DNA from: Candidatus Enterovibrio escicola
Lineage (GTDB): Bacteria > Pseudomonadota > Gammaproteobacteria > Enterobacterales > Vibrionaceae
DNA length: 64,000 bases
Assembly: GCF_002464935.1 (NCBI RefSeq)
Contig: NZ_NBYY01000039.1
Span: forward strand, 1 to 64,000
Direction of reading: 5' to 3'
Numbering within the stretch: the stretch's first letter is position 1; every line of letters begins with the position of its first letter. A program made the translations under genes and the position numbers. Below are positions 61,473-64,000 of the stretch, piece by piece. The notes beneath the pieces are model-generated. The model was not told the origin of the DNA, did no database searches, and saw only the letters and a list, made by a program, of their open reading frames with translations.

Positions 61473-62873
61473 TTGCAAAACTATGTTGATCAGCAAATAG
61501 AGTTACTTACTGCTTTCAACCACCTTAGGTTGAAACGGGCTCAAAGCGCTATGCACTCACAGGCAGTTAATGTTCTTCACATATTGCCTGTTTTGTTACA
61601 CTTTAATCATCCTGCCATCCCTGGATATTTAGAATCTAGTTTCGTCCATGGTATTTCTGACTTTTCTTTGTCTGACTTACAACAAAATTTTGTTAACGAT
61701 TGTGTCTTGGCATTAAACAATACCTCCCAAGAAAAATCCAGGACTATTAATTTTCCCATCAAAGGCCTGTTTTCTATGGGTAGTACCGCATCGATGGGAC
61801 AGTGTATTTCTAGTGATCTCGATATTTGGGTTTGTGTACAATGTTGGATGAACCAAGATCAGCGACTATTGCTCGATAGAAAGTGTTCGATGATTTCTGA
61901 TTGGGCGATGACACAGGGAGTGGAAGTTAACTTTTTCGTGATGTGTGAACTACGCTTCCGTCAAAACTTAGCTCAGGAAATGACGTCAGACAACTGTGGT
62001 ACTAGCCAACATTTCCTTCTATTAGATGAATTCTATCGTTCAGCATTGTATTTGGCAGGTCAGCAATTATTGTGGTATCTAGTTCCTTCTGAAATGGAAA
62101 ACTGCTATGAAGATTACGTTGCTGAGATGATCGCCAATGGAGTCATTCGTCGTGATGAATGGATCGATTTTGGTGGTCTACCCTCAATCCCTGCCGAAGA
62201 ATATTTCGGATCCAGCCTTTGGCATCTATACAAAAGTATTGATTCCCCATATAAATCTGTCCTCAAAGCCATTTTACTCGAAGCGTATTCGTGGGAATAC
62301 CCGAACACCAAACTTGTGAGTGTGGACGGGAAACGCCGTTTCTTTTCTGGGGTATTGGACATCTATCAATCAGATGCTTACTACCTAATGCTGGAAAAAG
62401 TCACCAACTATCTCGAGTGTATCGATGATAGTCGTCGCTTGGATTTGGTGCGGCGCTGCTTTTACCTAAAAACCCATGAACATATCACCCATAAGCCTAG
62501 CCTAGGATCTGTACCTTGGCGTCGAAAAGTGTTGTTTGTGTTGACCAGAGAATGGGGATGGAGCAAAAATGATATTGCCCATCTGGATAACCGTTGTAAC
62601 TGGAAAGTGGAAGAGGTGAAGTTGGCGCATAATGAGCTGCTAGAAGCGCTTATGTTGAGTTATCACAATTTAATCCGCTTCGCGCGGCACAATGACATCA
62701 CTTCTGCCATTAGCCCTGAAGATATCAGCATTTTAGCACGTAAGTTACATGCGGCGTTTGAAGTGTTACCCAATAAAGTAACTTTGCTTAACCTCCAACT
62801 GTCACCAGACTTACATAAGCCTGATTTGACGTTTATTCAGGTCCAGGAAGGAAGTAGCAACCCGCCTGGTTAG
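61473..62873 (+). CDS. cyaA: adenylate cyclase class I, truncated by an amber codon after the catalytic domain
   Basis: CyaA makes cAMP from ATP. The TTG start at 61473 (MQNYVDQQIELLTAFNHLRL) mirrors the UUG start of E. coli cyaA. The 466 residues cover the whole N-terminal catalytic domain: FSMGSTASMGQCISSDLDIWVC (nucleotidyltransferase G-S and D-x-D), EVNFFVMCELRFR, HFLLLDEFYRSALYLAG, EEYFGSSLWHLYKSIDSPYK, ending SPDLHKPDLTFIQVQEGSSNPPG. The next codon is TAG where relatives have Trp (SGWYLYN); the frame continues beyond it. The full-length protein is about 850 residues. Loss of the C-terminal half should remove the region through which the PTS (EIIA-Glc) controls activity. The catalytic half itself looks intact. 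Confidence 0.9.
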   Translation: MQNYVDQQIELLTAFNHLRLKRAQSAMHSQAVNVLHILPVLLHFNHPAIPGYLESSFVHGISDFSLSDLQQNFVNDCVLALNNTSQEKSRTINFPIKGLFSMGSTASMGQCISSDLDIWVCVQCWMNQDQRLLLDRKCSMISDWAMTQGVEVNFFVMCELRFRQNLAQEMTSDNCGTSQHFLLLDEFYRSALYLAGQQLLWYLVPSEMENCYEDYVAEMIANGVIRRDEWIDFGGLPSIPAEEYFGSSLWHLYKSIDSPYKSVLKAILLEAYSWEYPNTKLVSVDGKRRFFSGVLDIYQSDAYYLMLEKVTNYLECIDDSRRLDLVRRCFYLKTHEHITHKPSLGSVPWRRKVLFVLTREWGWSKNDIAHLDNRCNWKVEEVKLAHNELLEALMLSYHNLIRFARHNDITSAISPEDISILARKLHAAFEVLPNKVTLLNLQLSPDLHKPDLTFIQVQEGSSNPPG

Positions 62874-64000
62874 TATTTATATAAACAATCGCTTAGGCCT
62901 GTCGATATCATCGGGAGGGCATCGATTGAGTATAATTGTTATCTGTCTAAGCTGGTGGCATGGGTGTATTTTAACGGTATGTTAACAGAATCAACATGCT
63001 TACACTCGGTCGTAAGGACGAGTAACGTAAACATCGATAAATTATATCATTTTGTGAGTGATATTCGAAAAACTTTCCCTATACGGCGTCCACATCCGTC
63101 GTTACAGGCTCTGTCTAGCCCGTGTAAAATCCATAAACTCGCGTTGTTCATTAACCTAGAACAAGATCCAACCAATAAACTTAAGCACCCGTTAGTACGT
63201 TTTGATTTTAAAAATACAGACATTTTAAGTTATGGGTCGGATCAACAATGCTTGGTCGGTAGTATTGACTTAGTTTACCGGAATAGCTGGAATGAAGTTC
63301 AAACCCTGAACTTCATGGGTGAAAATGCCATGTTGGATGTGTTAAAAACCTTATTGGGAAAAATGCACCAAGATGCCATTCCTCCTGAATCGGTTGATGT
63401 GTTCTGTTATGCTGGTAAAATGTGTGGTCTCATCAGAAATTTAGTTGATAAATTGGTATCAGAATGTATCGATATGCGCCTCAAACCTATAGATTAGGAG
63501 AAATGTCGCCGTTTTAAAGCAATCCGTATTGCACATCAAACCTTCGGTCTTTTCTTTGAACGACGTGGTGTGTCGGTTCAAAAGTTAGAGAATGCAGTAG
63601 ATTTCTACTGCTCCATTTCTACCAACAAGATTAACGGTTCACCAGTGAGGGTAGTGGACAAGAATGGTGAAGTTCATCTACCAGAAGTGGTTGATAAATA
63701 CGCCAGTGAAGGTTTGATTCAGTACTTCTTTGAGGATTATGAGCAGGGGTTCAACACATATGTACTGAATGAGAACAATCACGTTGAAGTGTATCGCCAA
63801 TTTAACGGAGATAAAGATGAGATAGTGCAAAGTGTTAACCGATTCTACACTTCTACTCAGGACAATGTCACTTTTACCTCGCAATCTGTAAACTTCAATC
63901 TTCTACAATTCTATGACATAGTGCATCATGTAGATGGTCATGCCAAGATTATTCCTTATAAGAGCGAACGATCGTGGCAAGTTGCAGGTACAAGAGTGTA
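62874..64000 (+). pseudogene. cyaA: cyaA C-terminal (regulatory) part, in frame behind one amber and split by a second
   Basis: Same reading frame as 61473-62873. After the TAG at 62871-62873 it reads YLYKQSLRPVDIIGRASIEYNCYLSKLVAWVYFNG, PCKIHKLALFINLEQDPTNK, VGSIDLVYRNSWNEVQTLNF and GKMHQDAIPPESVDVFCYAG, to a second TAG at 63495-63497 (after RLKPID, where relatives have Gln). It then continues RRFKAIRIAHQTFGLFFERR ... VEVYRQFNGDKDEIVQSVNRFYTST to the window edge. No frameshift is present over the whole visible gene. An internal ATG (62988, MLTEST...) could not give a functional cyclase. Continues past the right edge. Confidence 0.88.

What the first reader, a model, noticed from the sequence alone, without database searches (positions are those of the whole stretch)
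61473..64000. cyaA carries two in-frame TAG codons and no frameshift; the first lies at the catalytic/regulatory boundary
Seen: the frame is continuous from TTG 61473 to the window end except for TAG at 62871 (at a position that is Trp in E. coli CyaA, SGWYLYN) and TAG at 63495 (Gln position). Each is one transition away from the expected codon. Known: the N-terminal half of class I CyaA holds the catalytic site, and C-terminally truncated E. coli enzymes keep activity but lose glucose/PTS inhibition. Inference: the 466-residue product may be a constitutively active, PTS-insensitive cyclase, fixed in a host-restricted lineage. Alternatives are a young pseudogene or amber suppression. An unnamed remnant at 53652-53955 also has a single in-frame TAG, so a recoding test is worthwhile.
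Basis: partly seen in the sequence, partly recalled or inferred. Interest (0 to 1): 0.78.

Follow-up and report, generated by a model that had tools for sequence, protein, structure and literature searches.

The report
Recently truncated adenylate cyclase in anglerfish symbiont
The glowing bacterium of deep-sea anglerfish carries two premature stop signals in its cyclic-AMP-making enzyme; both lie in the sugar-sensing half, the catalytic half is untouched, and a flashlight-fish symbiont has independently lost the same half.

Summary
Observation confirmed: cyaA runs from TTG 61473 with no frameshift, broken by TAG 62871 (codon 467) and TAG 63495 (codon 675). The genome is Ca. Enterovibrio escacola MJ02. 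Codon 467 is Trp in 103 of 103 relatives. TAG is a true stop here: none of 39 tRNAs has a CUA anticodon, RF1 is intact, and dapF and luxB end in TAG. A predicted structure puts the module boundary at residues 430-450, so the 466-residue product keeps the whole N-terminal nucleotidyltransferase domain and loses the C-terminal regulatory module. The truncation is young: along the escacola branch both halves show omega near 0.08, like intact neighbours. dN/dS therefore cannot separate a working truncated cyclase from a fresh pseudogene. New evidence tilts slightly towards a working catalytic half. A second reduced luminous symbiont (G208, inferred flashlight-fish Photodesmus) has a cyaA whose C-half is deleted and frameshifted while a 442-codon N-half stays open. 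Its crp is intact, and no class III cyclase was found. However, G208's N-half evolves fast. The sister symbiont E. luxaltus keeps cyaA full length. I give about 0.5 to an active, PTS-uncoupled cyclase and about 0.4 to gene death, possibly adaptive, as cyaA loss is in E. coli evolved as an insect mutualist.

The parts
61473..62873 (+). cyaA N-terminal part, 466 codons from TTG, ending at the first TAG; PF12633 (9-202) and the first 236 positions of PF01295 (229-464)
   Evidence: predicted alone as a confident fold for residues 1-429, tail disordered
61779..61829 (+). active-site motif of the nucleotidyltransferase fold, GSTASMGQCISSDLDIW (residues 103-119), with the family's invariant S104, S114, D115, D117, W119
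   Evidence: fold match to AAD(9)/AadA nucleotidyltransferases
62871..62873 (+). first in-frame TAG, codon 467; Trp in 103/103 homologues; in predicted strand 466-470 just after the N/C linker
62874..64000 (+). cyaA C-terminal regulatory half, untranslated or only by reinitiation; continues to the natural end TAG 64029-64031 (contig C20)
   Evidence: omega 0.072 on the escacola branch
63495..63497 (+). second in-frame TAG, codon 675; mostly Gln in homologues, His in E. luxaltus
60159..61106 (-). hemC, divergent neighbour, intact; used as rate control
53652..53955 (-). decayed plasmid replication initiator (Rep3_C) with one in-frame TAG; unrelated to cyaA

Best explanation
cyaA of Ca. E. escacola has recently been truncated by real stop codons just past the boundary between its two modules. 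SHOWN: TAG is a stop in this genome; the only full N-terminal product is 466 residues long; it contains the complete N-terminal nucleotidyltransferase domain with all invariant active-site residues; the C-terminal module, where PTS control by EIIA-Glc acts in E. coli, is cut off; crp and crr are intact and no class III cyclase was found. INFERRED: the product still makes cAMP, but its rate no longer follows the phosphorylation state of EIIA-Glc. In a light organ where glucose is the only PTS sugar, a full-length enzyme would be held off; a truncated one would keep CRP charged. The second TAG would then be a neutral later hit. The same outcome was reached separately in another reduced luminous symbiont (G208), by deletion.
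For: No CUA tRNA among 39; RF1 intact; TAG ends dapF and luxB at the same place as in relatives. Predicted structure: N domain to about residue 429, C module from strand 451-457; the 466-aa product folds alone with pTM 0.81. Both stops lie in the C-half, none in the N-half. G208: 442-codon N ORF ending in the linker, about 620 bp lost, and a frameshifted 543-bp C remnant. No stop or frameshift in the G208 N-half although 2.8-11.6 stops would be expected for its number of changes if neutral. crp is intact with cAMP-contact residues in all four luminous symbionts; no class III cyclase. Broken cyaA in 2 of 4 reduced luminous symbionts against 7 of 293 other Vibrionaceae with a fragmented match, Fisher p about 0.005 (the comparison was chosen after seeing the data). 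N-terminal catalytic / C-terminal regulatory layout in E. coli: PMC7382830, citing Roy 1983.
Against: dN/dS shows no contrast between halves (0.087 and 0.072), so nothing in this genome shows the N-half has been kept longer than the C-half. Two stops in the C-half by chance has p about 0.19. 974 of 3,290 CDS are predicted pseudogenes, so gene death is common. The G208 N-half evolves faster than the other genes compared (omega 0.55, neutrality not rejected by LRT) and has lost the nearly invariant F403-A404-R405. E. luxaltus and G209, with similar lifestyles, keep cyaA full length.
Confidence: 0.5

Rival explanations
1. Young pseudogene: the gene has lost function by drift in a decaying genome; the short product is inactive or degraded, and crp has not yet followed.
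For: Very high pseudogene load and host restriction; two independent stops with no contrast in omega between halves; the gene would probably be called a pseudogene by the published <60%-length rule (466 of 852 = 55%).
Against: No stop or frameshift in the N-half (p 0.07-0.2 if neutral for the time implied by two C-half stops); crp and crr intact; the G208 parallel.
Confidence: 0.27
2. Adaptive loss of cAMP signalling: truncation abolishes or lowers cAMP and is favoured in symbiosis, as disruption of cyaA or crp turned E. coli into an insect mutualist.
For: Koga et al. 2022, PMC9352592: a cyaA frameshift arose in an evolved line and a clean deletion reproduced the mutualist phenotype. Glucose is the only PTS sugar left in these symbionts.
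Against: crp is intact with cAMP-binding residues here and in G208; PMC6020299 reports motility and chemotaxis genes retained, whereas cya-null E. coli loses motility.
Confidence: 0.14
3. TAG is read as an amino acid (suppressor tRNA or recoding), and full-length CyaA is made.
For: Both stops are TAG; the C-half is still conserved.
Against: All 39 tRNAs found were typed and none is CUA; RF1 intact; TAG ends dapF, luxB and cyaA itself at homologous positions. The two TAGs would have to replace different residues.
Confidence: 0.02
4. Assembly or sequencing error, or a minority allele in the sequenced specimen.
For: Single metagenome-derived assembly; reads not available here.
Against: 58x Illumina coverage; two separate substitutions; frame otherwise perfect.
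Confidence: 0.05

Closest known systems
Class I adenylate cyclase CyaA of enterobacteria and vibrios (PF12633 + PF01295; NCBIfam NF006978)
   Same: Same gene, same divergent hemC neighbour, TTG start, nucleotidyltransferase active site, about 80% identity to Enterovibrio relatives over the N-half
   Different: Product ends at 466 instead of about 850 residues; no regulatory module; scores 679 against the equivalog cut-off of 1035
C-terminally truncated E. coli CyaA (two-domain model, Roy et al. 1983, cited in PMC7382830)
   Same: Catalytic N part without the C-terminal part bearing EIIA-Glc control
   Different: Laboratory constructs; here a natural allele, activity untested
cyaA-disrupted E. 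coli evolved as stinkbug mutualist (PMC9352592)
   Same: cyaA reading frame broken in a host-associated bacterium living in a symbiotic organ
   Different: That allele is treated as a loss of function and a clean deletion reproduces it; here the catalytic domain is spared
Open N-half cyaA of G208 (inferred Ca. Photodesmus of a flashlight fish)
   Same: C-module lost, N domain open, crp and crr intact, luxAB present
   Different: Loss by deletion and frameshift, much older, N-half partly relaxed

Membership tests
Class I adenylate cyclase (functional, full length) | N-terminal domain PF12633 and start of PF01295 | tested here: met
   229.5 and 360.8 bits
Class I adenylate cyclase (functional, full length) | Invariant active-site residues S104, S114, D115, D117, W119 | tested here: met
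Class I adenylate cyclase (functional, full length) | Complete C-terminal regulatory half in the product; equivalog score | tested here: not met
   TAG at codon 467; 679 bits against cut-off 1035
Class I adenylate cyclase (functional, full length) | Makes cAMP; controlled by EIIA-Glc | not testable with these tools
   needs assay
Pseudogene | Reading frame broken relative to intact orthologues | tested here: met
Pseudogene | Relaxed constraint over the gene | tested here: not met
   omega 0.087 (N) and 0.072 (C), omega = 1 rejected, same as hemC, dapF and lysA; a very recent event would also give this
Amber recoding / suppression | tRNA with CUA anticodon | tested here: not met
   39 of 39 tRNAs typed
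Amber recoding / suppression | RF1 lost, or TAG absent as terminator | tested here: not met
PTS-uncoupled catalytic-domain cyclase | Truncation at the module boundary leaving an autonomous N domain | tested here: met
   (prediction only)
PTS-uncoupled catalytic-domain cyclase | N-half under stronger constraint than the discarded C-half | tested here: inconclusive
   no contrast in E. escacola; clear contrast of reading-frame state in G208 but a fast-evolving N-half

The most novel reading that the evidence does not exclude
Luminous fish symbionts repeatedly shed the sugar-sensing half of CyaA and keep a free catalytic domain, turning a PTS-gated second-messenger enzyme into an ungated cAMP source feeding an intact CRP in glucose-fed light organs.
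Probability: 0.35. Interest if true: 0.75.

Novelty: new variant of a known kind. Interest (0 to 1): 0.55.

Why it matters
Catabolite control through cAMP-CRP is a first target when E. coli is evolved into a mutualist. Natural symbionts caught with the same gene freshly cut, and a second lineage with it cut long ago, would allow a direct test of whether symbiosis favours losing cAMP or only losing its link to sugar supply.

Tried and rejected
Recoding: rejected. The 53652-53955 'remnant' as support for recoding: it is a Rep3 plasmid initiator fragment. dN/dS by halves as a decider: no power, the event is too young. A strict claim that the G208 N-half is under purifying selection: the codon model does not reject neutrality; only reading-frame retention supports it. 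No solved class I cyclase structure matched by sequence. CRP-like sites upstream of cyaA and in the lux region: one 9/10 match and several weak ones, not pursued. A literature search for a published note on cyaA in these symbionts found none in the held library.

Full report
WHAT IS THERE. The cyaA frame starts at TTG 61473 and is continuous to TAG 64029 on the parent contig, except for TAG at 62871 (codon 467) and 63495 (codon 675). Relatives end at codons 850-857, so the C-half is present to its natural end. Codon 467 is Trp in every one of 103 other homologues; codon 675 is usually Gln, but His in the sister E. luxaltus. The genome has 2,645,619 bases in 39 contigs, exactly Ca. Enterovibrio escacola MJ02, luminous symbiont of the anglerfish Melanocetus johnsonii; G004, with a 1,604,691-base contig, is Ca. 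E. luxaltus CC26 (PMC6020299). E. luxaltus has a full-length open cyaA.

TAG IS A STOP. All 39 tRNA matches, the number published for this genome, were typed by ARAGORN and none reads UAG. RF1 is intact. dapF and luxB end in TAG where their relatives end.

WHERE THE CUT FALLS. No solved structure matched the N-half by sequence. AlphaFold2 on a 22-sequence alignment shows an N domain to about residue 429, a linker, and an alpha/beta C module from strand 451-457 on; residue 467 sits in the next strand, 466-470. The escacola 466-residue product alone is predicted as the same N domain (pTM 0.81) with a disordered tail from 430. Its closest solved folds are the AAD(9)/AadA nucleotidyltransferases, in line with the GS...SDLDIW motif, which is intact. 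This is prediction, not proof of activity.

AGE. A codon model with separate omegas on the escacola and luxaltus branches gives escacola 0.087 for the N-half and 0.072 for the C-half; 95% upper limits are near 0.13 and 0.12. Intact neighbours on the same branch give 0.059 (hemC), 0.093 (dapF) and 0.042 (lysA). The C-half can have been neutral for only a small part of the branch. Two C-half stops suggest roughly 0.03 neutral substitutions per site, with a very wide range; over that time a dead N-half would be expected to gain about 2.6 stops and shows none (p 0.07). This is weak evidence for the N-half being kept.

THE PARALLEL. In a survey of 297 Vibrionaceae genomes every one had a class I cyclase match; G208 (1.1 Mb) stood out. 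Its cyaA keeps TTG, 442 open codons and the catalytic motif, ends in the linker, and is followed by 543 bp in which three collinear, frameshifted, low-scoring pieces of the C-terminal end can be recognised (10.8 bits; best of 200 shuffles 7.8) before cyaY. hemC, cyaY and dapF around it are open. G208 and G209 both carry a luxAB pair and have the sizes of the flashlight-fish symbionts Ca. Photodesmus (Ppalp1 1,112,309 bp and Akat8 1,015,921 bp in PMC6020299); the naming is inference. G209 keeps cyaA full length. crp is intact in all four symbionts with the cAMP-contact residues present, EIIA-Glc is intact, and no class III cyclase was found. On the other side, the G208 N-half evolves faster than the other genes compared, has lost the nearly invariant F403-A404-R405, and neutrality is not rejected by omega; only the lack of any stop or frameshift argues for a maintained product. 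Its changes at otherwise invariant sites lie mostly in residues 241-450 (39 of 144) rather than 1-240 (11 of 96, about the same as intact G209).

HOW IT MAY WORK. In E. coli the C-terminal part carries control by EIIA-Glc, which when phosphorylated stimulates the enzyme (PMC7382830; PMC8600398). These symbionts have only a glucose PTS (PMC6020299). Cutting off the C module should break the link between glucose supply and cAMP. Whether cAMP is then made at a constant rate or not at all is the open point. The second outcome also has a precedent: disrupting cyaA makes E. coli an insect mutualist (PMC9352592).

VERDICT. A real, young truncation at a module boundary in a natural symbiont, with an independent older parallel. 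Activity is not shown. Ordinary gene death remains nearly as likely as a working catalytic domain.

Noticed in passing
L166:1555-2880 (-), and the 543 bp after its stop: G208 (inferred flashlight-fish symbiont) cyaA: open 442-codon N-half, C-half deleted and frameshifted, end of the protein still faintly recognisable before cyaY.
   Followed up: yes
window 53652-53955 (-): Decayed plasmid Rep_3 initiator fragment with one in-frame TAG inside the chromosomal contig.
   Followed up: yes
L149:5122-5833: lysA is broken in E. luxaltus (pieces with stops) but intact in E. escacola (66039-67292 of contig C20), the reverse of cyaA.
   Followed up: partly
window 3824-4372 and 13101-13658: DDE transposases (PF13612), one full and one partial domain match, in line with the transposon load reported for this genome.
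   Followed up: no
window about 16655-26638 (-): Type II secretion genes (GspC, D, H, K, L matched) retained in a reduced symbiont genome.
   Followed up: no
L164, L167, L165, L168, L170, L171 (genomes G217 and G297): Two larger Vibrio-group genomes also have cyaA split into several pieces; assembly error or true loss not settled.
   Followed up: no
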